Part shown: piece by piece, positions 1 through 61,069 of the stretch | Layout: every line of letters starts with the position of its first letter | How positions within the stretch are numbered: position 1 is the first letter of the stretch | Assembly (NCBI GenBank): GCA_036172665.1 | Contig: JAYKNF010000013.1 | Location: 1,674,001 to 1,738,000, forward strand | Direction of reading: 5' to 3' | DNA: 64,000 bases | Source of the DNA: Prosopocoilus inquinatus | Taxonomy: Eukaryota > Arthropoda > Insecta > Coleoptera > Lucanidae | Notes under the pieces: generated by a model | Database searches by the model: none | Told to the model about the DNA's origin: nothing | Seen by the model: the letters and a program-made list of their open reading frames with translations, nothing else | Position numbers and translations under genes: made by a program

Positions 1-500
1 TTCCGCGAAATGCATTTTTGCTTAAAGAATAACTTTCTGCTTAAAAAATAACTCTTCATAACAATTCATTTATTTGTATGAATGATAAACTTGGCCACAG
101 CGCGACATCACTGAATAACCGATTCCTGACCGATTCCTATACTGCGATTTTTAAATTCGGAGGTCGGACAACGTTAAATAAATTCTAAACATTTACTTAT
201 GGAGTTAAATTTATTAATAACTTCCAGTTATCAGATATAACTGCCAAGTGATATTCAACTCTTTAAAATTATAGATCCGTTTCAGATTCAAAATAATTGA
301 TTAGGAATGAATTTAAATTTTTATATGTGTTGACTGACTGAAAAATGACCTCTGCCGGACGTCTGATGTCAACGTCTCCACAACGTCGCAATAATGTCGT
401 CTCCATGACGTCATTTTTTCAGCCTCTGACGTCTTGGACGAATAATAACCAAAAAACGACGTCTCCGACGTCACTCTAACGTCAGTGTGTTAGCTGGGGT
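1..500. other. Unassigned AT-rich sequence
   Basis: No coding region, RNA gene or element end was recognised here. The only structure is a cluster of GACGT/ACGTC words from about 345 to 487, listed separately. The stretch ends where a piggyBac-like reading frame begins. Confidence 0.5.
345..487. repeat. GACGT/ACGTC word cluster
   Basis: About ten copies of ACGTC or GACGT occur within roughly 140 bp, several as the full palindrome GACGTC or TGACGTCA. They are irregularly spaced, so this is not a simple tandem repeat. It directly precedes the piggyBac remnant and could be a degraded element terminus. The word resembles a CREB/ATF site, but nothing here shows regulatory use. Confidence 0.5.
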
Positions 501-711
501 GTTGTTACGGTAGCCTCGACTTCATATGGTATACAACCAATATCTAATGTAAAGCGCTATTCCCAATCAGAAAAAAAAGTCATTCAAGTACCAAGACCTG
601 ATCTAATTGGCCAATATAACAACTATATGGGAGGGACAGATCAAATGGATTGAAATTTAGGACGGTATAGAATTTCAATCTTGGTAAGAAATGGTGGTGG
701 TGTATATTCAC
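501..711 (+). pseudogene. piggyBac transposase fragment
   Basis: The frame from 501 resembles the late part of the piggyBac transposase (DDE_Tnp_1_7): [20 protein letters not shown], then [12 protein letters not shown], then GRYRISI and KKWWWCIF. MGG-D-MD and KKWWW are hallmarks of this family near the third catalytic aspartate and just beyond it. A TGA at 651-653 falls right after QMD, and a one-base shift follows before KKWWW at 686. Only about 70 of roughly 550 residues survive. After WWWCIF the same frame becomes hAT-like, so the fragment is fused to the next element without a gap. Confidence 0.75.
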
Positions 712-2221
712 TACAAAGAAGAGTTGTGTTGTCATTGTAAGATATTTTGATAAAAATATGCAAAAAGTCTCTAGCAGGCTGTATGACTTACTTGAAGTTT
801 TTAAAGACGGGGAAGTACATGCTACAGCAGACCATCTCTACAAGTTGGTAATGAATTCCTTTAGAGAAAGAAACTTTGATTTAAAAAACCTTATTGGTTT
901 TGGTGCAGATGGGTGCAACACTATGTTTGGTGAACATAACTCTTTCGTCAGCAGACTTAAAAGTGATTTTCCAGGAATTATCGCTACTAAATGTATTTGT
1001 CACTCACTGCATCTGTGTGCAAGTAGTGCATGTGAACAGCTTCCTAATGAATGTGAAAAGTTAGCAAGAAATATTTATAACTATTTTAAGGTAAGCAACT
1101 ACAAAGATTTTTATTAAAGCTAACTAATGTTAAGTATTATTACAATTACAGAACAGTTCAAATCGCCAAGCTGATTTTGAAGAGTTTCAAATGTATGCTG
1201 AAGTTGAAATTCACAAAATACTAAAACCCTCCCAAACCCGATGGCTTTCTATTGCTATGGTATCACAGAGAATTTTAGAACAATGGAATGCATTAAAACT
1301 CTACTTTACCGATAAGTGGCTTGCTGAAAGTAATGTGTCTAGTAAGGAAATCTATAACAGTTTAAACAACCAATTCATGGAATTATATTATTGTTTTTTG
1401 TCTTGGATATTGCCAAAAATTTCAAATATAAATCAGTATTTTCAAAGTGATAAAGTAGTTATTCTCAATCTACATAAAAGAATGCAAGAAGAATTCCAGG
1501 ATTTGTTGTTGGCTTATATGAGATATGATTATATTACCTCAAGAAAACTAAATGAAGTAAATCCAGCAAATGCTTCTTATTTCAAAAATAAAAAATACAT
1601 TAGCACAAAAATTGGAAAATCCTCTAATTAAGAATGATGTAGAAAAATTGAATTTGTTTCTTTCGAACTGTCAAAACTTTCTCTGTGTACTTTGTTGTGA
1701 GTTAAAAAAAAGGTATAATTTTGGAGATGACAACTATTTATCAAATTTAGATATCTTTTTGCCTAAAAATGTTGTATCACTGTCATTTCACGAAACTCAT
1801 CCTTCTCTAGTAGTATATTTTAAAAATTTTCCAAGACTTATTTCAGCTGAAAATCATCAAAAAATTGATGATGAATGGAGAAAACTTCCTCTGTATAATA
1901 ACTTGCCGAGTGTATCATTAGATATTGATGTTTTTTACTCTAAAGTATTAGACATAAAAAATGTATAAAGAATGTGAAAGACAGTTTAGCAAAGTGAATC
2001 TAATAAAAACCAAAGTGAGAAATCGTTTAAATATTCAAACATTGTCAGCCATTCTATTATCTAGTCAACATATCAAAAACAATGGTACCTGTGTAAAATT
2101 CCAACCTCCTGTTAAAATGATTCGAATGTGCAATTCAACCATGTACGATCATAAACATTCTACCTGTGTTAGAAATGAAAATTCAGATGCTGCTGACTGT
2201 TTGTTTGAAAATGTTTTATGA
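712..2221 (+). pseudogene. hAT-family transposase pseudogene (ZBED/SCAND3-like)
   Basis: hAT-type DDE transposase, which moves DNA by cut-and-paste. The frame runs through 758-1090, where FGADGCNTMFG holds the second catalytic aspartate and KCICHSLHLC is typical of this hAT group. It then crosses a 61-bp GT-AG intron at 1091-1151 (AAG/GTAAGC to TTACAG) in phase 0, and continues in frame into 1152-1631. Frameshifts near 1590 and near 1955 (an A run) separate the next pieces. The last piece carries ECERQFSKVNLIKTKVRNRL, the C-terminal hAT dimerisation region with the ERxFS-type motif. The N-terminal BED finger and first catalytic aspartate are missing. A related but distinct copy lies at 54898-57021 on the minus strand. 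Confidence 0.82.
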
Positions 2222-3837
2222 ATAATACGTAAACTGTTTTTTAGAGACTAGTGTTACTGGTTAGAACATTAGAACTAGGGTTTAAAATGTAAAATATATT
2301 TTGTAAGAAAAGAACGAAAAAATAACATGAATAATGAAATTATTTAAATAAAAAGTACCTACTTATAAATACAGTAATGCGTGTTTATTCTACTACTACA
2401 AAATTTACTTTAAATTTGTTGAATAGCAAGTTTGAAAAATAAGCTTAAAGTAATTAATACGATAATTTTGCCTCAAACACGATATTTTCTCTACAATTGG
2501 TACGATAAATTGGTGTAAGAAGGTTGGCAACACTGATTAGTTCAGTAGGAGCATACATTTAGTTGAGGAATAGCATCATCTGTCAGTGTGCTTTGAATGA
2601 TTTCATTTCCACTGACTTAACGATTTTTTACAATTTTTCTTGAAAATGTATCAAGCACACAAAATGTTGCTTTAATATTGTGACACCTGCATTTTGATTC
2701 ATTCTTGAAGCCTTACCAAAATCTATTATTAACAATATTTCATAATTAATGGTATGAATCGTAAGTCTACATCTGTAACCCAAATTGGTTTGACAGCAGT
2801 TTATTCTGGTTAACTAAAAATTTAATGATGCTTTAAATATCTACTAATGTTTTTGATTCACTGGCATTGAATCAACGCACAACGAGTATCTTCATCTTGT
2901 GTTATTACAAGATGCAAACACTCTGACTGCAACCAGTACAAATGAATCAAAGACGCTATTTGCTTCACTGTTCTTTGTCAATTTCTTCGAGATTAATAAA
3001 TCATTTTATTTTCTGAAAGAGCCAGAGTGAAACGTAGATAAACTTTCATTACGTTGGTCATCATCATCAGTTTTTTCAAACTTGTGATGCAAATGAAGAC
3101 AAGTGCTACTCTTACGGTAATCTTGGAATAAGGGATGTAATCAGATTAAACAATATTTTTATTAACTTAGAAATAATATAAAGAAGGTTATGAGCCTCTC
3201 ACATAACACTTGATATTTTCAGCTTCGATGGAATTAAATTGCAAGGTCATCAAACTTGAAGGAAACAAGCTGCAGTAACGTTTAGGTGTTTTAACTTTAT
3301 GCACTCTTGGTGTCACTTGGATGTAGAACTGATGTTACTAGATAGGTACTTTTGTGAGTTTATATCCACTCGTTATATTGAGTACATTTTAATCAGTACA
3401 TCGGTCAGTTTAATGCCAGATGGATTGGTGGATATTCTAGGTTAGATAGCAATCTTACGATGAGTTCATGTTTATGTTAAAATCTCCTTGCTTCAATACA
3501 AATTAACTCTGAGAAGTCTTTCTATTTTGACTGCAATGTAACTAAATTAGGAAACGAATTAAATTATTCGCCAATACATACCCTCTTTAAATTAAAATTT
3601 CTACGCCTGACAACTTCGCTTTAAATTCATAGTTAAAATTTAAAATGGAGTATTTAACCTCAAACTAGTTGTTGCGTACTGACCTCTGTTAATCTCTGCC
3701 TATGTGTTTTGTGTTTACCACAAGAGCCCAACAAGAACCGGCTGCGGAATTTGATAAAAATGACAGTCCGCGATACGGTTCTGCCATCTAGCGAATTTTT
3801 ATAAACTACTCAACTTGCTCAAAATTTTAAACTGAAA
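2222..3837. other. Unassigned intergenic sequence
   Basis: About 1.6 kb of AT-rich DNA with no long open frame, no recognised protein remnant on either strand and no clear terminal repeat. The last 150 bases probably include the 5' end of the following mariner-type element, but no matching terminal inverted repeat was found. Confidence 0.45.
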
Positions 3838-43201: not shown

Positions 43202-43544
43202 TGTTACAAAATTCGTAAAACACAAATTATTGATATGTATAAATTTTAATTTAATAATTTAATAAAACACTCGGTAAAAACTTAATCGTAATTTAATAAC
43301 GCTTACAAACTAATTTATTTGTAACAATTTATTTACACACTAAAATCTAACTTCGACGATTGCTGTTAGAATAGACTGACTCCTGAGTCCACCCCGAGCG
43401 ATTTTATATCCTTTGCTGCCATCTCGAATTTTCCAAGCTGGAAAATTCGAGTTTGTTCGATGGTGGCGTGATGGCCAATGACGCATAACGGACCGACTTC
43501 TTGACGCCTTCAGTTTGACGTAGTGAGCCGGGTGGCGCGCCACA
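43202..43544 (-). repeat. Gypsy B 3' LTR
   Basis: Inner edge fixed by CGCGCCACA next to the PPT. Matches 48760-49024 and 60770-61069 (AACTAATTTATTTGTAACAA, AAATCTAACTTCGACGAT). The outer 60 bases match the other LTRs poorly, so the 43202 edge (TGTTAC) is tentative. Confidence 0.75.
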
Positions 43545-44098
43545 CTGCCCCCTTCTTAAAAACGTTTCGTCTCGAAATGTTCCTGGTGATAGTCTAGAAG
43601 GAGGGTGTCGGAATCTACATGCTGGCCCATTCTTGCAACTTCCCGTCTGGAAGAAGTAGCAGTCCACGGTTTTGCTGTTGCTGACTGTTGCCTGTGGGTG
43701 GTGGCTGCAGACTAGGACTTCAATTCCCGTTCTGTGGAAGATAACTTCCAGCATGCTTCGAATTACTCTCCAGTCTAGTCCGTCCAATCCGCAGCCCAAT
43801 TTGGGGATGGCTAACTTCATCTGGTGGTTGTCTATTAGCTGTCTCCTCAGGCTATACAGGGCTCTCCACATACTTTGATAGTCAGGTTTACCGCTTGATG
43901 TCTTCTTAGTGACTAAATAATGCACGTGGCGCCTCCGATCTGCAAGCTCTTGCCTACCATGGGATGCTGTCTTCGGAGCTCCTCGATTTGGCCAAATTTC
44001 TTCCTAAACACCTGAGCAATTCCTTTGGACATTTTCAGGTCTTCTGCTACGCAGTGGGCCAGACTGTACTCCAGTGGCACTTTAAAAAGATCTTGTTG
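43404..44098 (-). pseudogene. TARG1/OARD1-like macro domain and CCCH finger at the end of Gypsy B pol
   Basis: Macro domains of this family remove ADP-ribose from proteins. The upstream half is residues 812-872 of the pol frame (44098-43916): DLFKVPLEYSLAHCVAEDLK, KGIAQVFRKKFG. After a one-base shift at about 43920 the downstream half runs 43925 to about 43701: HYLVTKKTSSGKPDYQSM and IPKLGCGLDGLDW. The Lys of TKK and the Asp of GCGLD correspond to the catalytic Lys84 and Asp125 of human TARG1. Beyond it, CYFFQTGSCKNGPACRFRH (43661-43605) is a C-x7-C-x5-C-x3-H zinc finger. The frame then crosses the PPT and stops in the LTR at 43404. It directly follows the integrase GPY/F module. Confidence 0.85.
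43545..43557 (-). other. Gypsy B polypurine tract
   Basis: AAGAAGGGGGCAG on the minus strand immediately upstream of the 3' LTR start TGTGGCG; it primes plus-strand synthesis in this element class. The tract is inside the frame that carries the CCCH finger. Confidence 0.75.
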
Positions 44099-47000
44099 CT
44101 TCTCCGTGGTCACTCCAAACCGTGCCTTAATTCCTTCAGTGTGATGAGACATGAAGGTTTCGAAGTTCACTTCGGAAACTTGCGCCCTTTGTACTGTCCC
44201 TTCATCTGCTTCTCCATGGTAAGGGGCTATCCGGTTGAAGTGGATTACTTTGGGTTTGCCATGGGGGACCTTTTTGATGCGGTAAACGACGTCGTTGATC
44301 CGTTTCATCACTTTGTAAGGACCTTCCCAAGAGGTCTGCAGTTTTGGGGAGAGGCATCGACGTCTTTGGGGGTTATAAAGCCAGACCAGTGCTCCAGGTT
44401 GGTATCCCCCGTGTTGAGCGTTTATGTCATAGTGCTCCTTCATCCGATCGCTGGCTGTCTGTATATTGTGACGCACTTGGTTGTGGATGTCATCCATTTT
44501 CCTGCGTAATTTGCTCACGTAATCTTCGTCGGCAGAGACTTCGCCAGGCTTCACACCAAACTTCAGGTCGCAGGGCAGTCTCGGCTCTCGCCCGAATACC
44601 ACTTTCGCGGGAGTCTCCCCTGTTGTCTCATGAACGGATGAGCGGTATGCCATTAGAAACAGGAGGATGTACGTGTCCCAGTCCCTCTGATGATCGGAAA
44701 CGACCTTGGACAAATGTCGGTTGATGGTTCTATTGAATCTTTCCACCATTCCGTCCGACTGTGGGTGGAGTGCAGTTGTTCTAGTCTTTCGTACGCCGAG
44801 CAGAGTACACACGTTCTTGAACAAGGCCGATTCAAAGTTCCTTCCTTGGTCTGAATGCAGTTCCATAGGTGCACCATACCGACTGATCCATTCCCTGACA
44901 AGGACTTCCGCAATAGTGACTGCCTCTTGGTTAGGTAGGGCGTAAGCTTCAACCCACTTGCTAAAGTAGTCCATTACTACGACGATGTACTTGTTTCCAT
45001 CATTCGTTTCTGGAAACGGGCCGGCTACATCGATGGCAACTCTCTCAAAAGGACTTTCAACGTTGTACTGTCTCATGGGGGCCTTACCCCGCCTGTGGGG
45101 ACCGTTACTGGCTGCGCAGACTGCACACTTTCTGCACCAATCCTTCACGTCTTCCTTGCAGTTCACCCAGTAAAATCTTTCGCGCACCTTCTCCATAGTC
45201 TTCTTAACTCCCAGATGCCCTCCCGAAGTTCCATCGTGAAGTTCCCTCAGAACTTCTGGCACCCTATTCTTGGGGATTAGTAACTGTGTCTTCTCTTCCA
45301 TGCCTTCTGGATTCTCCATGCTTCGTCTCAGAAGACCACGATCCAACACTATGGAGTCCCACTGCGCCCAGTATGATTTTACGGACGGTGCACATGGTGC
45401 TACCTCTTCCCAGGTAGGCTTCGCGTCCCTGCTTTTCCATTCTAGCACTAATTTCAAATCCGGGTCGTTCTTCTGGTCTCTTCGCAGTTCTTCGTCTTGC
45501 CATTTGTCGTCAACTATGGCTGTCCTCGCAGTCGTGGCTACTTTCTCGTCCAAACGACTACAGTGCTTACAGTCTTCGGCACAGGGTCTTCTCGACAAAG
45601 CATCGGCATTTCGATGGCTAGTTCCTGCCCGATGCTGAATTTCAAAATCGTACTCCTGAAGTCGTTCGATCCATCGTGCAACTTGCCCTTCTGGGTTCTT
45701 GAAACGGAGAAGCCATTTTAGAGCGGCGTGGTCGGTCCTCAGCAGGAAGCGTCTACCATACAAGTACTTGTAGAAGTGTTCTATCGTTTTTACGACGGCT
45801 AGCAATTCCCTTCTTGTGACGCAATAGTTTCGTTCCGGCTTTGATAGGACTTTACTGAAGTAGCCGATCATCTTCTCTTGCTCCTCTTGTATCTGGGAGA
45901 GTACGCCACCAATCCCAACGTTGCTAGCATCTGTGTCCACGACGAATTTGCCTTCCGGGAGAGGATAACTCAGAATAGGAGCACTAATCAAGTACTGCTT
46001 TAGTTGTTCAAAGCCAATTTGACACTGTTGGTCCCATTCAAATGGACGACCTTCTTCAGGGAGTTTTGTCAACGGCTTAGCAATGTCTGCAAATCCAGGA
46101 ACGTAGCGCCGATAGTAAGTGCACAGGCCAAGGAAACTCCTTATTTGGTGTTTATTTCTGGGAGTTGGCCAGTCTTTCACCACCTGAATCTTCACAGGGT
46201 CCACGGCGATTCCATTTCCATTAACAATGTGCCCCAGGTAATTCACTTCCTTCTGGAACAGGTGACACTTCTTGAGGCTAAGCTTTAGGCCAGCTCCGCG
46301 AAGCCGCTGGAACAGGTTCCTTAGGTGGTCGTCGAACGTTTTTTCCACGACAATTATGTCATCAAGGTACACCATGCACGTTGTCCAGGACAGACCTTTC
46401 AGAACCGTCTCCATTAACCTCTCGAATGTCGCTGGGGCATTACATAATCCGAATGGCATCACTGTGAACTGCCACAGACCCATACCAATGGAAAACACCG
46501 TCTTTTCTCGATCTTCAGGCGCCAGCTCCACTTACCAATATCCACTCTTCAAGTCCAAAGTTGAGAAGATCTTTGTGCCGGCCAGGGTGTCAAGGGTAGC
46601 ATCAATCCGTAGTAGGGGATAGCTGTCCTTCTTGGTGACATTGTTGAGTAACCGGTAGTCTACACAGAACCTGGTGGACCCATCCTTCTTCTTCACAAGC
46701 ACTACTGGTGACGCCCACGGACTGCTTGATGGTTCTATTACATTATCCTTTTCCATCTCACGAATAATGCGTTCCGCTTCCTCACGCTTCGCCAACGGTA
46801 ATCCCCTTGGAGCTTGACGGATAGGTCTTTCTTCTCCAGTCTCTATTTTGTGTTTCACGACATCAGTTCTTCCCTTGGATCCATTTTCTACCTCAAATAC
46901 ATCTTGATAGCGGCCGATCAGATTCTTTGCTTTTGTCTTCTGGTCTGGAGTCAATTCCTGGGCTGTTGACATAACCATTTCCCATAATTTCTTTGGGACT

Positions 47001-47774
47001 TTCGCTTCTGGCATGTTTGTTTCAAGTTGGCGGGAGATGGAGGACACCATGGTGCAGCTTCCCAAGATTGTTCCTTTCTTGATATTGACAGAGAAACAAT
47101 TGACGTTCATCAGGCGGACAGGTACTTCCTTCTTCGCCGTCAACAACATTTTCCCAACGAGGACTCCTCTTCCAATCCTTTGATCATCAGTATTAGGTTC
47201 AACCATAATGACTTGCCCATCTTGAAAAACACCGTTCAGTTTTGCGTCGACGATAACCTCAGTCCTGCTGGGTAATACAACGTCTTCAGCGAGGACTACT
47301 CGAGCGGACACGTCTCTTCGTTGATGTAGAACCAACTCCTCATTATTGACCGCCATCACGCCACGCTTTAAGTCCAATTGAAACCCGTGGGCACACATGA
47401 CGTCCATGCCCAAAATTGCCTCGTCCTCTATGTCTGCCACCAGTGCACGGTGTTGCAGTTTTCAGTCTCCACTTGGTCGGCTCGGTGCGTCCAGATGACT
47501 TAATGACGTCGGGTCTTAGGATGGTCTTCGTCGCACCCGTATCCAATAACATGGTGTGAGGAATGTCATCAATGGTAACATCCACGAAGACACTGCTGGT
47601 TAACTGCCGTAGGGATATTACTTGTTTGGATTTCGTCTTTGGGGGCCTTTGAATACGGGTCGACGTTTGCCCCTCTGCACCGACCCGGCTTAGTTTAACT
47701 GTGGCTTCCTTGGATCCTGAGTGGGCTTTGGACATCGCCTGCGAACATGTCCTTCCTCCTGGCAATTCCAACAC
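43913..47774 (-). pseudogene. Gypsy B pol (protease-RT-RNase H-integrase-macro)
   Basis: Protease: MLLDTGATKTILRPDVI near 47560, then a deletion/shift into DIEDEAILGMDVMCAHGF near 47440. RT: KKKDGSTRFCVDYRLLNNVT, FSTLDLKSGYW, then a TAA for CAA at 46532-46534, then MPFGLCNAPATFERLM and MVYLDDIIV (catalytic box intact). RNase H: FVVDTDASNVGIGG and RTDHAALKWLLRF. Integrase: HLGVKKTMEKVRERFYWV zinc region, VAIDVAGPF, HSDQGRNFES, GMVERFNRT (DDE intact), then WEGPYKVMKRINDVVYRI (GPY/F). Three residues after DDHLRN are missing compared with Gypsy C. One nonsense codon, the protease lesion and the macro shift are the only breaks seen. Confidence 0.9.
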
Positions 47775-48628
47775 ACCAGCGGCTTCTTCTGCTTGAAGAC
47801 CTGTTCCACAATGCGGCGAACATCCTCGGCGGTGGTATATTCCCTGGGTCGCTCCTTTATAGCAGATCCCACCTTTCAGTTAGCGGATTCTTTCTCTTCT
47901 TTCTTTTTTCTTTCTTTATTATCCTGCTGAAATATTATTTCTTCCACATTTTCTTGCAGGTTCCTTGTTTCTTCCGATATTTTTACCACTAGTTTATCTT
48001 CGAGTCCTTTCGTCTGCTCTAGAAATTCACCCTTCAAATTTCCGGATTGTTCTAGAAGCTTCTCTTCTAAATTTCTGGATTGTTCTCGAAGCTCGTCCTG
48101 GAAATTTCCAGATTGTTCTAGAAGCTTCTCCTCTAAATTTCTGGATTGTTCTCCAAGCTTCTCTAAATTTCCAGACTGTTCTTGAAACTTCTCGTCCAAA
48201 TTTCTGGATTGTTCTCGAAGTTCGTCCTTGAAATTTCCAGATTGTTCTAGAAGCTTCATCTCTAAATTTCTGGATTGTTCTCGAAGTTCGTCCTTGAAAT
48301 TTCCAGATTGTTCTAGAAACTTCTCGTCCAAATTTCTGGATTGTTCTCGAAGTTCGTCCTTGAAATTTCCAGACTGTTCTCGAAGTTCGTCCTTGAAATT
48401 TCTGGATTGTTCTCGAAGTTCATCTTTCAGGATTTTATTAAAATCGACGGGACCACACGAAATTTCGAAAAGGAGCGTCTCTGGATCTTCACCAGCTGTC
48501 AACAAATCGCATTGGAGACGCTGTTGAAGTGCGGCTTTCAAACCACAGGTTTCTAACTCTCGTTCTTCCAATTCGGTTTTTAATTCCGCCATTTTTATGT
48601 CTTTCAACAACACTTTTCTCGTAGCCAT
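47690..48628 (-). pseudogene. Gypsy B gag with internal deletion
   Basis: The ATG at 48628 starts MATRKVLLKDIKMAELKTEL, a SAP-like helix-extended-helix motif (leucine pattern continuing to ALQQRL). A coiled-coil region of about 12 repeats of EQSGN/EQSRN follows, spanning about 48050-48430. After IFQQDN the sequence jumps to KKEEKESAN and a stop at 47876. About 330 codons present in Gypsy C (the gag core) are missing. The CCHC knuckle CWNCQEEGHVRRRC survives at 47690-47872 in another frame. This gag is not functional. Confidence 0.85.
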
Positions 48629-48725
48629 TGTTTTTTTTTTATACTGTACTTATTTAATAATCTGATTAAATTTAATTTACTTTAAATTGTTTATTTATTT
48701 GCACAAACCCGCACACCGACACCAC

Positions 48726-49024
48726 TGATACGTTTCTAGGGTTTAAATTTATTTAAAAACTTAATCGTAATTTAATAACGCTTACAAACTAATTTATTTG
48801 TAACAATTTATTTACACACTAAAATCTAACTTCGACGATCGCTGTTAGAATTCGACTGACTCCTGAGTCCACCCCGAGCGATTTTATATCCTTTGCTGCC
48901 GTCTCGAATTTTCCAAGCTGGAAAATTCGAGTTTGTTCGATGGTGGCGTGATGGGCAATGACGCATAACGGACCGACTTCTTGACGCCTTCAGTTTGACG
49001 TAGTAAGCCGGGTGGCGCGCCACA
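48726..49024 (-). repeat. Gypsy B 5' LTR
   Basis: Element-strand start TGTGGCGCGCCACC at 49024, end near TATCA at 48726 followed by the PBS. About 50 bp shorter than the Gypsy C LTR owing to a missing AACGAATAAAACACTCG segment and other gaps. Confidence 0.82.
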
Positions 49025-57021: not shown

Positions 57022-57232
57022 TTCCCACTGCGCCCAGTATGATTTTACGGACGGTGCACATGGTGCTACCTCTTCCCAGGTAGGCCTCGCGTCCCTGCTT
57101 TTCCATTCTAGCACTAATTTCAAATCCGGGTCGTTCTTCTGGTCTCTTCGCAGTTCTTCGTCTTGCCATTTGTCGTCAACTGTGGCTGTCTTCGCAGTCG
57201 TGTTTACTTTCTCGTCCAAACGACTACAGTGC

Positions 57233-59111
57233 TTACAGTCTTCGGCACAGGGTCTTCTCTGTGTCCACGACGAACTTGCCTTCCGGGAGAGGATAACTCA
57301 GAATAGGAGCACTAATCAAGTACTGCTTTAGTTGTTCAAAGCTAATTTGACACTGTTGGTCCCATTCAAATGGACGACCTTCTTCAGGGAGTTTTGTCAA
57401 CGGCTTAGCAATGTCTGCAAATCCAGGAACGTAGCGCCGATAGTAAGTGCACAGGCCAAGGAAACTCCTTATTTGGTGTTTATTTCTGGGAGTTGGCCAG
57501 TCTTTCACCACCTGAATCTTCACAGGGTCCACGGCGATTCCATTTCCATTAACAATGTGCCCCAGATAATTCACTTCCTTCTGGAAGAGGTGACACTTCT
57601 TGAGGCTAAGCTTTAGTCCAGCTCCGCGAAGCCGCTGGAACACTCCTTCCAGGTTCCTTAGGTGGTCGTCGAACGTCTGTCCCACTACAATTATGTCGTC
57701 AAGGTACACCATGCACGTTGTCCAGGACAGACCTTTCAGAACCGTCTCCATTAACCTCTCGAATGTCGCTGGGGCATTACATAATCCGAATGGCATCACT
57801 GTGAACTGCCACTGACCCATACCAATGGAAAACGCCGTCTTTTCTCGATCTTCGGGCGCCAGCTCCACTTGCCAATATCCACTCTTTAAGTCCAAAGTTG
57901 AGAAGATCTTTGAGCCGGCCAGGGTGTCCAGGGTATCATCAATCCGTGGCAGGGGATAGCTGTCCTTCTTGGTGACATTATTGAGTAACCGGTAGTCTAC
58001 ACAGAACCTGGTGGACCCATCCTTCTTCTTCACAAGCACTACTGGTGACGCCCACGGGCTGCTTGATGGTTCTATTACATTATCCTTTTCCATCTCGCGA
58101 ATAATGCGTTCCGCTTCCTCACGCTTCGCCAACGGTAATCGCCTTGGAGCCTGACGGATAGGTCTTTCTTCTCCAGTCTCTATTTTGTGTTTCACGACAT
58201 CAGTTCTTCCCTTGGATCCATTTTCTACCTCAAATACATCTTGATAGCGGCCGATCAGATTCTTTGCTTTTGTCTTCTGGTCTGGAGTCAATTCCTGGGC
58301 TGTTGACATAACCATTTCCCATAATTTCTTTGGGACTTTCGCTTCTGGCATGTTTGTTTCAAGTTGGCGGGAGATGGAGGACACCATGGTGCAGCTTCCC
58401 AAGATTGTTCCTTTCTTGATATTGACAGAGAAACAATTGACGTTCATCAGGCGGACAGGTACTTCCTTCTTCGCCGTCAACAACATTTTCCCAACGAGGA
58501 CTCCTCTTCCAATCCTTTGATCATCAGTATTAGGTTCAACCATAATGACTTGCCCATCTTGAAAAACACCGTTCAGTTTTGCGTCGACGATAACCTCAGT
58601 CCTGCTGGGTAATACAACGTCTTCAGCGAGGACTACTCGAGCGGACACGTCTCTTCGTTGATGTAGAACCAACTCCTCATTATTGACCGCCATCACGCCA
58701 CGCTTTAAGTCCAATTGAAACCCGTGGGCACACATGACGTCCATGCCCAAAATTGCCTCGTCCTCTATGTCTGCCACCAGTGCACGGTGTTGCAGTTTTC
58801 AGTCTCCACTTGGTCGGCTCGGTGCGTCCAGATGACTTAATGACGTCGGGTCTTAGGATGGTCTTCGTCGCACCCGTATCCAATAACATGGTGTGAGGAA
58901 TGTCATCAATGGTAACATCCACGAAGACACTGCTGGTTAACTGCCGTAGGGATATTACTTGTTTGGATTTCGTCTTTGGGGGCCTTTGAATACGGGTCGA
59001 CGTTTGCCCCTCTGCACCGACCCGGCTTAGTTTAACTGTGGCTTCCTTGGATCCTGAGTGGGCTTTGGACATCGCCTGCGAACATGTCCTTCCTCCTGGC
59101 AATTCCAACAC
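57233..59111 (-). pseudogene. Gypsy C pol (protease and RT only)
   Basis: Protease in 58680-59111 with MLLDTGATKTILRPDVI. The frame then switches into DIEDEAILGMDVM at 58777, at exactly the same lesion as in Gypsy B. RT is uninterrupted: KKKDGSTRFCVDYRLLNNVT, LDLKSGYWQVELAPEDREKT (Gln present where Gypsy B has a stop), MPFGLCNAPATFERLM, MVYLDDIIVVGQTFDDHLRN. The remaining RNase H start FVVDT runs out of frame at 57250. A further 70 codons of linker before integrase lie at 57022-57219. Confidence 0.88.
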
Positions 59112-60619
59112 ACCAGCGGCTTCTTCTGCTTGAAGACCTGTTCCACAATGCGGCGAACATCCTCGGCGGTGGCATATTCCTTGGATTGCCCCTTATTAGC
59201 AGATCCCACCTTGGCGTTGGCGGACTTTTCTTCTTCTTCCTCTTGGAAGTCCATAGCCGCTCGCACCTTGACATGCCCTCTTGAAACTCGTCTCGCCGCT
59301 TCAAATTCCAAGGCATAAGCCAATGCGTTCTTGGACGTCTTCGGATGGGTCATTCTCAATGCCTGCTGGTTGTCTGGGTCACGGATTCCATCTATGAAGG
59401 TCTGCACCGTCAAACATTTGAGGAATTCAACGGGAGCTGTGGGATATGCCAACTGGGCCAGACGCGCTACGTCCGCTTCGAATTCTTGAAGACTTTCTCC
59501 GGATTTCTGACAGCGATTCCTCAACTGCGCATGGTATACCTCGGTCAGATGGGCCTGTCCGTAACGCATTTCCATCCTATTCACTAGCTTGTCGAAGTCT
59601 TCTGGTTCCTCTGGCGGCATCGTCTGTAGCACATCGATAGCGTCTCCTCTCAAGGCCACAATTAACGAAGTGGCTTTTTCGCTGGCCGTCCATCTGGTTG
59701 CCTTTGCTGCTGCTTCGAACTGTTTGAAGTAGTTGGGCCAAGAAGATTTTCCATCGAACGTCGGTGGTTTTATTTTCAATTTCGAATTTTCTGCTGGTCC
59801 TTCCACAACTCGGGTTTCATTATTTTCTAGTGTTTCTACTGGTGGCTGATCCCCGAACACTCGCAACCCCGCCATGATTTGTTCCAGATTTTTGATTTTG
59901 TTATCCTGCTGAAATATTATTTCCTCCACATTTTCTTGCAGGTTTCTTGTTTCTTCTGATATTTTTACCACTAGTTTATCTTCGAGTCCTTTCGTCTGCT
60001 CTAGAAATTCACCCTTCAAATTTCCGGACTGTTCTAGAAGTTTCTCGTCGAAATTTCTGGATTGCTCTAGAAATTTCTCGTCTAAGTCTCTAGATTGTTC
60101 CAACAATTTATTTTGTAATTTGTCGAAATTTCCAGATTGTTCTAGAAGCTTCTCCTCTAAATTTCTGGATTGTTCTTGAAGCTGCTGTAAATTTCCAGAC
60201 TGTTCTTGAAACTTCTCGTCCAAATTTCTGGATTGTTCTCGAAGTTCTTCCTTGAAATTTCCAGATTGTTCTAGAAGCTTTTTCTCTAAATTTCCAGACT
60301 GTTCTTGAAACTTCTCGTCCAAATTTCTGGATTGTTCTCGAAGTTCGTCCTTGAAATTTCCAGACTGTTCTTGAAACTTCTCGTCCAAATTTCTGGATTG
60401 TTCTCGAAATTCATCCTTCAAGATTTTATTAAAATCGGCGGGACCACACGAAATTTCGAAAAGGAACGTCTCTGGATCTTCACCAGCTGTCAACAAATCG
60501 TATCGGAGACGCTGTTGAAGTGCGCCTTTCAAACCACCGGTTTCTAACTCTCGTTCTTCCAATTCGGTTTTTAATTCGGCCACTTTTAAGTCTTTCAACA
60601 ACACTTTTCTCGTAGCCAT
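59027..60619 (-). CDS. Gypsy C gag, 530 aa: SAP-like motif, coiled coil, gag core, zinc knuckle
   Basis: Open frame from the ATG at 60619. Residues 1-45 form a SAP-like motif (LLKDLKVAELKTELEERELE, then LKGALQQRLR). Residues about 68-220 form a charged coiled coil built from about 12 EQSGN/EQSRN repeats. Residues about 285-450 are the gag core (IKPPTFDGKSSWPNYFKQFE, SLIVALRGDAIDVLQTMP, FEADVARLAQLAYP). A CCHC knuckle CWNCQEEGHVRRRCPKP is near the C-terminus. SAP motifs bind AT-rich DNA in scaffold proteins, so a role in chromatin targeting is conceivable, but that is inference. No lesion seen. Confidence 0.88.
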   Translation of the reverse strand: MATRKVLLKDLKVAELKTELEERELETGGLKGALQQRLRYDLLTAGEDPETFLFEISCGPADFNKILKDEFREQSRNLDEKFQEQSGNFKDELREQSRNLDEKFQEQSGNLEKKLLEQSGNFKEELREQSRNLDEKFQEQSGNLQQLQEQSRNLEEKLLEQSGNFDKLQNKLLEQSRDLDEKFLEQSRNFDEKLLEQSGNLKGEFLEQTKGLEDKLVVKISEETRNLQENVEEIIFQQDNKIKNLEQIMAGLRVFGDQPPVETLENNETRVVEGPAENSKLKIKPPTFDGKSSWPNYFKQFEAAAKATRWTASEKATSLIVALRGDAIDVLQTMPPEEPEDFDKLVNRMEMRYGQAHLTEVYHAQLRNRCQKSGESLQEFEADVARLAQLAYPTAPVEFLKCLTVQTFIDGIRDPDNQQALRMTHPKTSKNALAYALEFEAARRVSRGHVKVRAAMDFQEEEEEKSANAKVGSANKGQSKEYATAEDVRRIVEQVFKQKKPLVCWNCQEEGHVRRRCPKPTQDPRKPQLN

Positions 60620-60719
60620 TGTTTTTTTTTTCCTATACTGTACTTATTTAATAATCTGATTAAATTTAATTTACTTTAAATTGTTTATTTATTTGCACAA
60701 ACCCGCACACCGACACCAC

Positions 60720-61069
60720 TGTTACGTTTCTAGGGTTTAAATTTATTTATTTAAACGAATAAAACACTCGATAAAAACTTAACCGTAATTTAAATAAAGC
60801 TTAAAAACTAATTTATTTGTAACAATTTATTTTCACACTAAAATCTAACTTCGACGATCGCTGTTCGAATTCGACTGACTGGTGAGTCAACTCCGGGCGA
60901 TTTTATATCATTTGCTGCCGTCTGGAATTCTCTACGCTGGAAGATTCGAGTTTGTTCCATCGCCGGAAAAGTCTAGGCTGTTCGATGTAGACCCCGGTGG
61001 CGTGGCAGCCAATGACGCATAACGAACCGACTTCTTGACGCCTTGAGCTAAGCCGGGTGGCGCGCCACA
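60720..61069 (-). repeat. Gypsy C LTR
   Basis: 350 bp, TGTTACGTTTCTAGGG on the plus strand to GTGGCGCGCCACA. TG...CA ends and an adjacent PBS define both edges. It is the 5' LTR of the element; the 3' LTR is absent from this locus. Confidence 0.88.

What the first reader, a model, noticed from the sequence alone, without database searches (positions are those of the whole stretch)
43404..44098. Gypsy retroelement pol ends in a TARG1-like ADP-ribosylhydrolase domain plus CCCH zinc finger
Directly after the integrase GPY/F module the frame continues as a TARG1/OARD1-type macro domain. Both residues equivalent to the catalytic Lys84 (TKK) and Asp125 (GCGLD) of human TARG1 are kept, and a canonical C-x7-C-x5-C-x3-H finger follows. 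It lies inside the element: the frame runs through the PPT into the 3' LTR. Macro domains that reverse ADP-ribosylation are used by several RNA viruses against PARP-based defence, so a retroelement keeping one suggests a counter-defence or integration-site function. I know of no described Gypsy group with this arrangement, but I could not search.
Basis: partly seen in the sequence, partly recalled or inferred. Interest (0 to 1): 0.92.

Follow-up and report, generated by a model that had tools for sequence, protein, structure and literature searches.

The report
Gypsy retrotransposons carrying a TARG1 ADP-ribosylhydrolase
At least six families of jumping genes (Gypsy retrotransposons) in one genome, probably a beetle's, carry inside their copying-and-inserting protein a version of the animal enzyme TARG1, which is predicted to strip ADP-ribose tags and would likely help these elements escape a host system that represses them.

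Summary
In the window a Gypsy pol runs from integrase into a TARG1/OARD1-type macro domain and a C-x7-C-x5-C-x3-H finger, through the polypurine tract into the 3' LTR. This copy is broken (in-frame stop in RT, frameshifting deletion in the macro domain). In the same genome 147 of 150 scored macro copies of the family have no stop inside the domain. At least five further families there carry the domain, three of them between protease and RT. Public proteins show the window arrangement in beetles and other Gypsy polyproteins with the domain before protease, between protease and RT, between RNase H and integrase, or after integrase. The catalytic Lys and Asp are kept in 46 of 46 element rows examined, and shared changes show purifying selection. 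A relative's predicted fold matches human TARG1. Best reading: a Pol-borne ADP-ribosylhydrolase that counters host ADP-ribosylation, analogous to retroviral dUTPase. Activity and target are inferred. More than one capture is favoured by trees but not proven. My paper searches found no description of it.

The parts
48726..49024 (-). 5' LTR (TGTGG...TATCA)
   Evidence: direct repeat of the 3' end; boundaries read by eye from the sequence and from other copies
47876..48649 (-). gag-like ORF with a SAP motif and an 11-residue (33-nt) repeat array
   Evidence: ORF; Pfam SAP E 2.5e-6; repeats
47343..47879 (-). protease piece
   Evidence: Asp_protease_2 E 2.2e-5
46532..47461 (-). pol piece ending in the first part of RT; closed by an in-frame stop
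   Evidence: ORF; RVT_1 E 1.8e-5, 25 bits against a cut-off of 29.6
45281..46531 (-). rest of RT and RNase H
   Evidence: RVT_1 E 1.5e-18, RT_RNaseH E 1.4e-33
44162..45280 (-). integrase with H2C2, rve and C-terminal p58_C/SH3-like module
   Evidence: Pfam hits
43952..44101 (-). TARG1-type macro domain, N part, in the integrase frame
   Evidence: phmmer to C6orf130 structures, E 2.7e-10
43710..43931 (-). TARG1-type macro domain, C part, in the other frame (this copy has a frameshifting deletion)
   Evidence: phmmer to OARD1 structures, E 2e-14
43905..43907 (-). codon of the catalytic Lys equivalent (TARG1 Lys84)
   Evidence: alignment; lysine in 46 of 46 element rows
43782..43784 (-). codon of the catalytic Asp equivalent (TARG1 position 125)
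   Evidence: alignment; aspartate in 46 of 46 element rows
43599..43673 (-). CCCH zinc finger
   Evidence: Pfam zf-CCCH E 1.3e-6; CPSF30 E 8.1e-10
43545..43557 (-). polypurine tract, read in frame as part of LRRGQC
   Evidence: sequence; LRRGQC also near the ends of P0052, P0072 and P0106
43261..43544 (-). 3' LTR, its last part missing in this copy; the macro-CCCH frame stops inside it (43404-43406)
57023..61069 (-). second, partial copy of the same family in the window (LTR, gag and RT/RNase H pieces; no integrase or macro match)

Best explanation
The feature is a TARG1-type ADP-ribosylhydrolase domain, here followed by a CCCH finger, built into the Pol polyprotein of Gypsy retrotransposons; it is predicted to be catalytically active, likely travels in the particle with reverse transcriptase and integrase, and would remove ADP-ribose that the host likely attaches to the element's proteins, RNA or cDNA, so countering ADP-ribose-based repression. 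Shown: the domain lies in one open frame with protease and RT or with integrase in several families, the catalytic pair is kept, and it evolved under purifying selection. Inferred: activity, release by the protease, presence in the particle, the substrate, and the benefit to the element. Its scattered places in pol (before protease, before RT, before integrase, after integrase) fit an enzyme that only has to be delivered with Pol, as I recall for retroviral dUTPase, better than a part of integrase. The CCCH finger, seen only beside window-type domains, would guide it to RNA (inference).
For: In the same genome: integrase-macro-CCCH, protease-macro-RT in one frame (B, B', E), protease-macro with RT hits downstream (D), integrase-macro (C) and protease-macro (F). 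Copy success: 147 of 150 scored window-family macro copies have no stop inside, and 49 of the 150 combine this with an open frame of 1000 aa or more, by my count of the listing; family B stands in frames of 1914-1916 aa in 9 of the 39 rows. Catalytic Lys and Asp in 46 of 46 element rows. Selection over 38 copies: changes shared by two or more copies give N/S ratios of 0.30 in the macro domain (p 2.9e-5), 0.23 in the finger and 0.34 in the integrase end, against 0.75 in the linker and 0.73 in the LTR tail; single-copy changes give 0.65-0.97; macro plus finger, shared against single-copy, p 0.0036. Between families B and B' dN/dS is 0.13 for the macro domain against 0.37 and 0.28 for the spacers beside it (dS near saturation). 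Fold of a beetle relative (P0106): best Foldseek hit TARG1 with ADP-ribose, TM 0.97 by target, rmsd 0.8. Other species: 12 of 47 and 20 of 21 database proteins join the domain to retroelement domains. Literature: Lys84 and an acid at 125 form the catalytic dyad, and TARG1 acts on proteins and nucleic-acid ends (PMC7050489, passages); TARG1 reverses DNA ADP-ribosylation (PMC8501950, abstract); several gypsy-superfamily elements rise without PARP-1 in Drosophila, many below significance (PMC7712786, passages); SIRT6 silences L1 by ADP-ribosylating KAP1 (PMC4695847, passages); dUTPase sits between gag and RT, RT and IN, or after IN (PMC5408684, passages).
Against: No enzyme activity, expression or particle content could be tested. 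A macro-broken variant was itself copied: the window copy and a 99.2% identical copy at C11:24.82 Mb with another 3' flank share the broken frame pattern, so the domain is not strictly needed in cis. Most of the 40 copies nearest to the window copy do not hold macro and finger in one frame (31 of 40). The contrast of macro shared against LTR-tail shared changes is only p 0.078; copies are related, so the p values are rough. In the Drosophila paper the effect may be indirect, as its authors say. A chikungunya preprint finds ADP-ribose binding, not hydrolysis, important in Aedes (PMC12632316, abstract). Which ADP-ribosyltransferases this genome has was not learned: the PF00644 search did not complete.
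Confidence: 0.55

Rival explanations
1. One reading: the domain binds ADP-ribose and guides integrase to chromatin or DNA breaks marked by PARP, as chromodomains are thought to guide chromoviruses (recalled). Hydrolysis would be incidental.
For: In families A and C the domain follows integrase, where chromodomains sit; one database protein has both a chromodomain and a macro domain beside integrase (P0032). ADP-ribose binding matters more than hydrolysis for chikungunya virus in Aedes (PMC12632316, abstract).
Against: In families B, B', D and E of this genome the domain lies between protease and RT, far from integrase. A pure reader would not need the catalytic Lys, yet it is kept in 46 of 46 element rows.
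Confidence: 0.2
2. Integration helper: the enzyme clears ADP-ribose from DNA ends or from PARP-1 at the nicks and gaps left by integration, so that cDNA ends stay usable and gaps are repaired. It serves repair rather than escape from silencing.
For: TARG1 acts on ADP-ribosylated nucleic-acid ends and interacts with PARP1 (PMC7050489, passages), and TARG1-deficient cells are very sensitive to DNA ADP-ribosylation (PMC8501950, abstract). A domain in Pol would lie next to the cDNA (inference).
Against: Nothing in the sequence separates this from counter-repression; the CCCH finger of family A points to RNA rather than DNA ends (inference).
Confidence: 0.17
3. Passenger: host OARD1 sequence picked up by read-through and carried without function.
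For: The window copy and 31 of the 40 copies compared lack macro and finger in one open frame; a broken variant was also copied.
Against: Purifying selection, domains without a stop in 147 of 150 scored copies, several families and several beetle species, catalytic residues 46 of 46.
Confidence: 0.03
4. Domesticated or mis-assembled host gene rather than part of the element.
For: Some database rows are gene models with odd names (P0033, named tropomodulin; P0035), where neighbours may be joined.
Against: The domain lies between integrase and the polypurine tract inside an LTR pair, it stands at 150 scored places of the genome, and a separate OARD1-like gene lies at C5:3.7525 Mb with an intron inside the domain.
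Confidence: 0.01

Closest known systems
TARG1/OARD1 (C6orf130), ALC1-like class of macrodomains
   Same: Sequence match, predicted fold with rmsd 0.8 for a beetle relative, catalytic Lys and Asp.
   Different: Lies inside a retroelement polyprotein, without the intron of the genome's own OARD1-like gene, and next to a CCCH finger in the window family; activity not tested.
Ty3/Gypsy (Metaviridae) LTR retrotransposons with an integrase C-terminal module
   Same: PR-RT-RH-IN order, LTRs, polypurine tract, H2C2/rve/p58_C integrase.
   Different: Carries an ADP-ribosylhydrolase-type domain inside pol; no chromodomain match in the window element.
Retroviral and LTR-retrotransposon dUTPase in pol
   Different: Different enzyme; dUTPase cleans the nucleotide pool (recalled), this one is predicted to erase ADP-ribose.
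Orchid Gypsy elements with an AlkB m6A demethylase
   Same: A Gypsy element carrying an eraser of a modification, proposed to reflect host surveillance (PMC9289625, abstract).
   Different: Extra ORF in one 25-kb plant lineage and shown active; here a domain within pol in several lineages, activity untested.
Macrodomains of RNA viruses (alphaviruses, coronaviruses)
   Same: A macrodomain in a viral polyprotein that counters host ADP-ribosylation (PMC7232374, listing only; PMC12632316, abstract).
   Different: Foldseek places the beetle domain with TARG1 and DarG (E 1e-16 to 2e-8), ahead of RNA-virus macrodomains (best 2.5e-7); Lys/Asp site of TARG1.

Membership tests
TARG1/OARD1 macro domain | sequence similarity to human TARG1 over the domain | tested here: met
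   E 2.7e-10 and 2e-14 for the two pieces
TARG1/OARD1 macro domain | catalytic Lys84 and acid at 125 | tested here: met
   both kept in the window piece and in 46 of 46 element rows
TARG1/OARD1 macro domain | TARG1 fold | tested here: met
   AF2 model of beetle relative P0106, macro part mostly over pLDDT 90; best hit 4j5s, TM 0.97 by target; the window copy itself was not folded
TARG1/OARD1 macro domain | ADP-ribosylhydrolase activity | not testable with these tools
   needs an assay
Ty3/Gypsy retrotransposon | pol order PR-RT-RH-IN | tested here: met
   Pfam pieces in order from 47879 down to 44162
Ty3/Gypsy retrotransposon | paired LTRs and polypurine tract | tested here: met
Ty3/Gypsy retrotransposon | target-site duplication | tested here: inconclusive
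   no matching flanks; the 3' LTR end of this copy is missing
Chromovirus | chromodomain after integrase | tested here: not met
   no chromodomain hit in the window pieces at E up to 1
CCCH zinc finger | C-x7/8-C-x5-C-x3-H above the Pfam cut-off | tested here: met
   zf-CCCH 28.6 bits against 20.5
Pol-borne accessory enzyme (dUTPase-like role) | enzyme-type domain within pol, position varying between lineages | tested here: met
   four placements; RH-macro-IN rests on two gene models only, macro before protease on one contig protein with a protease hit (P0028)
Pol-borne accessory enzyme (dUTPase-like role) | enzyme present in particles | not testable with these tools
   needs particle proteomics

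The most novel reading that the evidence does not exclude
Insect Gypsy retrotransposons took up the host's own ADP-ribose eraser TARG1 more than once, at several junctions of pol, and package it to erase ADP-ribose marks from their proteins, RNA and cDNA. ADP-ribosylation would then be an unrecognised arm of insect defence against retrotransposons, with an arms race between host transferases and element-borne hydrolases.
Probability: 0.42. Interest if true: 0.92.

Novelty: new variant of a known kind. Interest (0 to 1): 0.82.

Why it matters
Fixation of additional protein domains in LTR retrotransposons is considered rare and can reveal host-element interactions (PMC9289625, abstract). Here one enzyme type recurs in several deep RT lineages and at different places in pol, with its catalytic residues kept. 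That points to ADP-ribosylation as a real obstacle to retrotransposition in insects, a subject for which I found only hints, such as rising gypsy-superfamily elements without PARP-1 in Drosophila (PMC7712786, passages). It gives natural domains for a direct assay. It also explains misleading names in beetle gene sets: 8 of 16 Molorchus polyproteins of the window type are listed as cleavage and polyadenylation factors.

Tried and rejected
One-off host fragment: rejected. Chance read-through: rejected by E-values and selection. Single origin of all retroelement macro domains: no bootstrap tree of 200 shows it in either careful tree, but AU tests do not reject it: all element rows in one clade p 0.19 and 0.26, the same without the Rhynchophorus row p 0.12 and 0.37. 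Two narrower AU tests did not reject either: beetle and locust-type host rows as a clade without Rhynchophorus p 0.24, window-type rows with P0032, P0033 and P0035 as a clade p 0.069. So I claim only that several captures are favoured. The nesting of the Rhynchophorus row in the beetle host OARD1 clade (96/96; 97/98) rests on one gene model. RT tree: four lineages, but without macro-free Gypsy rows, so it cannot say whether macro-bearing elements form one clade among Gypsy; P0033 and P0035 are long branches that meet. IMG/VR scan: 33 loci on virus contigs, not followed. LTR dating of families B and E: no LTR pair found in the stretches fetched; family C gave 129 of 129 identical bases. PARP content of the genome: not completed. 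Organism name: not given by any search; beetle is inferred from the 61% match of one OARD1-like exon to Tribolium and from the named window-type relatives, which are Coleoptera apart from two contigs filed under a mildew.

Rows dropped before counts: two window-like copies (L081, L082) from the selection counts; copies under 80% identity or under 60% filled left out per region (32 to 38 of 38 kept). Single-copy changes do not reach a ratio of 1 because transitions were not weighted, so the fair contrast is shared against single-copy (macro p 0.016). A first count, with wrong region limits, gave the same macro ratio for shared changes and was replaced. The first tree (92 rows, quick method) had long-branch rows, which were dropped later. 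Decayed genome copies were left out of the residue count; some of them have lost the Lys or Asp codon (1 other codon of 38 at Lys, 2 at Asp, besides gaps).

Full report
OBSERVATION. On the minus strand, 43261-49024 is a Gypsy element: LTR pair, a gag-like ORF, protease, RT, RNase H and integrase. The integrase frame goes on into a match to human TARG1 (E 2.7e-10). In the other frame the match continues (E 2e-14) with the Lys and Asp of the active site and a CCCH finger like those of CPSF30. The frame runs through the polypurine tract into the 3' LTR. The copy is broken: an in-frame stop splits RT and a frameshifting deletion splits the macro domain.

COPIES IN THE GENOME. A DNA search scored 40 of 2488 first-look candidates; these cover at least 583 of the 695 bases at 87-100% identity, and 2 short matches came besides. 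Of the 40 copies (39 fetched and the window), 9 hold macro and finger in one open frame by my pattern test; this set was picked by likeness to a broken copy. A protein search with a natural open macro domain scored 150 of 1391 candidates, all at 95-100% identity: 147 have no stop inside the domain, and by my count 49 of these lie in open frames of 1000 aa or more. The window copy is 99.97% identical to one at C11:24.91 Mb over 3695 bases, flanks included, hence a duplicated segment. A third copy at C11:24.82 Mb (99.2%) has the same open-frame pattern but another 3' flank. So a macro-broken variant was copied at least once.

OTHER FAMILIES. A search with Pfam Macro gave 39 matches. Three (L009-L011) look like MacroD-type pieces (sequence). 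The 32 others that I translated look TARG1-type; four matches were not fetched. They fall into families: B and B' (PR-macro-RT in one frame), C (IN-macro plus about 200 aa without a Pfam match), D (CCHC-PR-macro, with RT hits downstream) and E (PR-macro-RT in one frame). A search with the Tribolium OARD1-like protein added F (protease then macro; its macro part is below the Pfam cut-off but matches B at E 1e-51) and G (macro; retroelement context weak). The domains of A to G are 37-69% identical. The same search found a probable host gene at C5:3752508-3753233 in two pieces, one 61% and one 37% identical to Tribolium, with a GT-AG intron inside the domain; the element frames run through that point without one.

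OTHER SPECIES. Of 47 proteins found with a family B macro region, 12 join it to retroelement domains: macro before protease (P0028) or before RT (P0034, P0036), PR-macro-RT (P0039, P0043), RH-macro-IN (P0033 Leptinotarsa, P0035 Rhynchophorus; both are gene models) and IN-macro (P0011, P0023, P0029, P0032, P0040; P0011 and P0023 with the finger). The other 35 showed none of these domains. A search with the window-type region gave 21 new proteins. Of these, 20 have a protease, RT or integrase hit and 18 have the finger: Molorchus minor (16 rows), Aromia (1), contigs filed under the mildew Erysiphe pulchra (2) and unnamed contigs (2). Short window-type ends also occur in Gonioctena, Brassicogethes and Aromia, and an integrase end with macro but no finger in Pyrocoelia. 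These five genera belong to four beetle families.

ACTIVE SITE AND FOLD. Lys and Asp are present in 46 of 46 element rows, five short fragments included, and in 150 of 150 other rows. The rows were chosen by similarity and decayed genome copies were left out. In the 38 genome copies Lys is kept in 36 and Asp in 34. An AlphaFold2 model of P0106 (mean pLDDT 78; over 90 for most of the macro part, about 50 for the finger end) has TARG1 with ADP-ribose as best hit, TM 0.97 by target, rmsd 0.8 over 142 columns. The finger's structure is not supported by the model.

SELECTION. Over 38 copies (two window-like copies dropped), nonsynonymous to synonymous ratios for changes shared by at least two copies are macro 0.30 (27/25; p 2.9e-5), finger 0.23 (6/7; p 0.009), integrase end 0.34 (34/30; p 2.3e-5), linker 0.75 and LTR tail 0.73 (neither significant). 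For changes in one copy they are 0.65-0.97. Macro shared against single-copy changes: p 0.016; with the finger p 0.0036; macro against LTR tail, both shared: p 0.078. So the domain was held about as firmly as the integrase end while the family spread, and decays after insertion. Between B and B' the macro dN/dS is 0.13 (dS 1.38, near saturation) and the spacers beside it 0.37 and 0.28, protease 0.16, RT 0.07. Between D copies L036, L032 and L030 it is 0.16-0.22. Older B and B' copies against young ones give 0.32-0.51, two C pairs 0.25 on few changes, and the near-identical pair L036-L039 0.79. In B against B' the macro domain is better kept than the stretches just beside it, and 200 codons of RT are identical at every base, which points to recombination between families, a way to move modules.

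ORIGIN. In macro trees the window-type rows form a clade (100/95; 95/95). The Rhynchophorus row nests in beetle host OARD1 (96/96; 97/98). No bootstrap tree unites all element rows, yet AU tests do not reject one origin. The RT tree shows four lineages: window type with C (integrase-macro), B with D and the two RH-macro-IN rows, E with P0034 and P0043 (macro before RT), and P0028, P0029, P0036, where places are mixed. Several captures are favoured, one is not excluded.

HOW IT MOST LIKELY WORKS. Established: TARG1 removes ADP-ribose from proteins and nucleic-acid ends through Lys84 and an acid at 125 (PMC7050489, passages) and reverses DNA ADP-ribosylation (PMC8501950, abstract). SIRT6 silences L1 through ADP-ribosylation of KAP1 (PMC4695847, passages). 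Several gypsy-superfamily elements rise in Drosophila without PARP-1, many below significance and perhaps indirectly (PMC7712786, passages). Inferred: the domain is made with Pol, carried with RT and integrase, and erases ADP-ribose from the element's proteins, RNA or cDNA. dUTPase shows the same freedom of place in pol (PMC5408684, passages). A plant Gypsy lineage with an active m6A eraser is the nearest idea in print that I found (PMC9289625, abstract and passages).

NOVELTY. Seven paper searches listed no paper that, by title and start of abstract, treats a macro domain in LTR retrotransposons; the lists were capped at 20-25 of 153-3243 papers. The main texts of the Troyka, giant-transposon, bdelloid and orchid papers hold no word beginning with macro or ADP-rib. 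Subscription journals, most preprints and Repbase were not searched. A 2014 survey found TARG1 only occasionally in invertebrates (PMC4245714, one section) and mentions TARG1-like homologues in viral genomes (passage). I file it as a new variant of a known kind: a captured accessory enzyme in pol, with an activity not reported there before as far as I could search.

Noticed in passing
window:47876-48649 (-): The gag-like ORF starts with a SAP motif (Pfam E 2.5e-6) and holds a degenerate array of 33-nt repeats coding 11-residue units; unusual for a Gypsy gag as far as I recall.
   Followed up: no
window:37189-41676 (-): A second, different Gypsy element (gag-like, protease-RT and integrase pieces) with no macro match, about 1.6 kb downstream of the first.
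   Followed up: partly
window:49677-51272 (+): ORFs that look like a PIF/Harbinger-type transposase (recalled resemblance, no family search run).
   Followed up: no
L021/L044 and L040 (families B and B'): 200 codons of RT are identical at every base between two families whose protease, spacer and macro parts differ by 12-47% of bases: a recombination or gene-conversion patch.
   Followed up: partly
P0021, P0024, P0030: TARG1-type macro domains in proteins with DNA-ligase and PARP-type zinc-finger Pfam domains; no retroelement domain found in them.
   Followed up: no
P0168, P0187: Window-type polyproteins on short contigs of an assembly filed as the powdery mildew Erysiphe pulchra; insect contamination seems likelier than transfer.
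   Followed up: no
P0033; Molorchus rows among P0170-P0186: Element proteins bear misleading public names: tropomodulin (Leptinotarsa) and, in 8 of 16 Molorchus rows, cleavage and polyadenylation specificity factor.
   Followed up: no
L092-L124: 33 loci on IMG/VR virus contigs encode TARG1-like relatives, 23-43% identical; their context was not looked at.
   Followed up: no
window copy and C11:24.91 Mb (L001, L002): 3.7 kb identical at 99.97% including flanks on contigs C13 and C11: a segmental or assembly duplication.
   Followed up: partly
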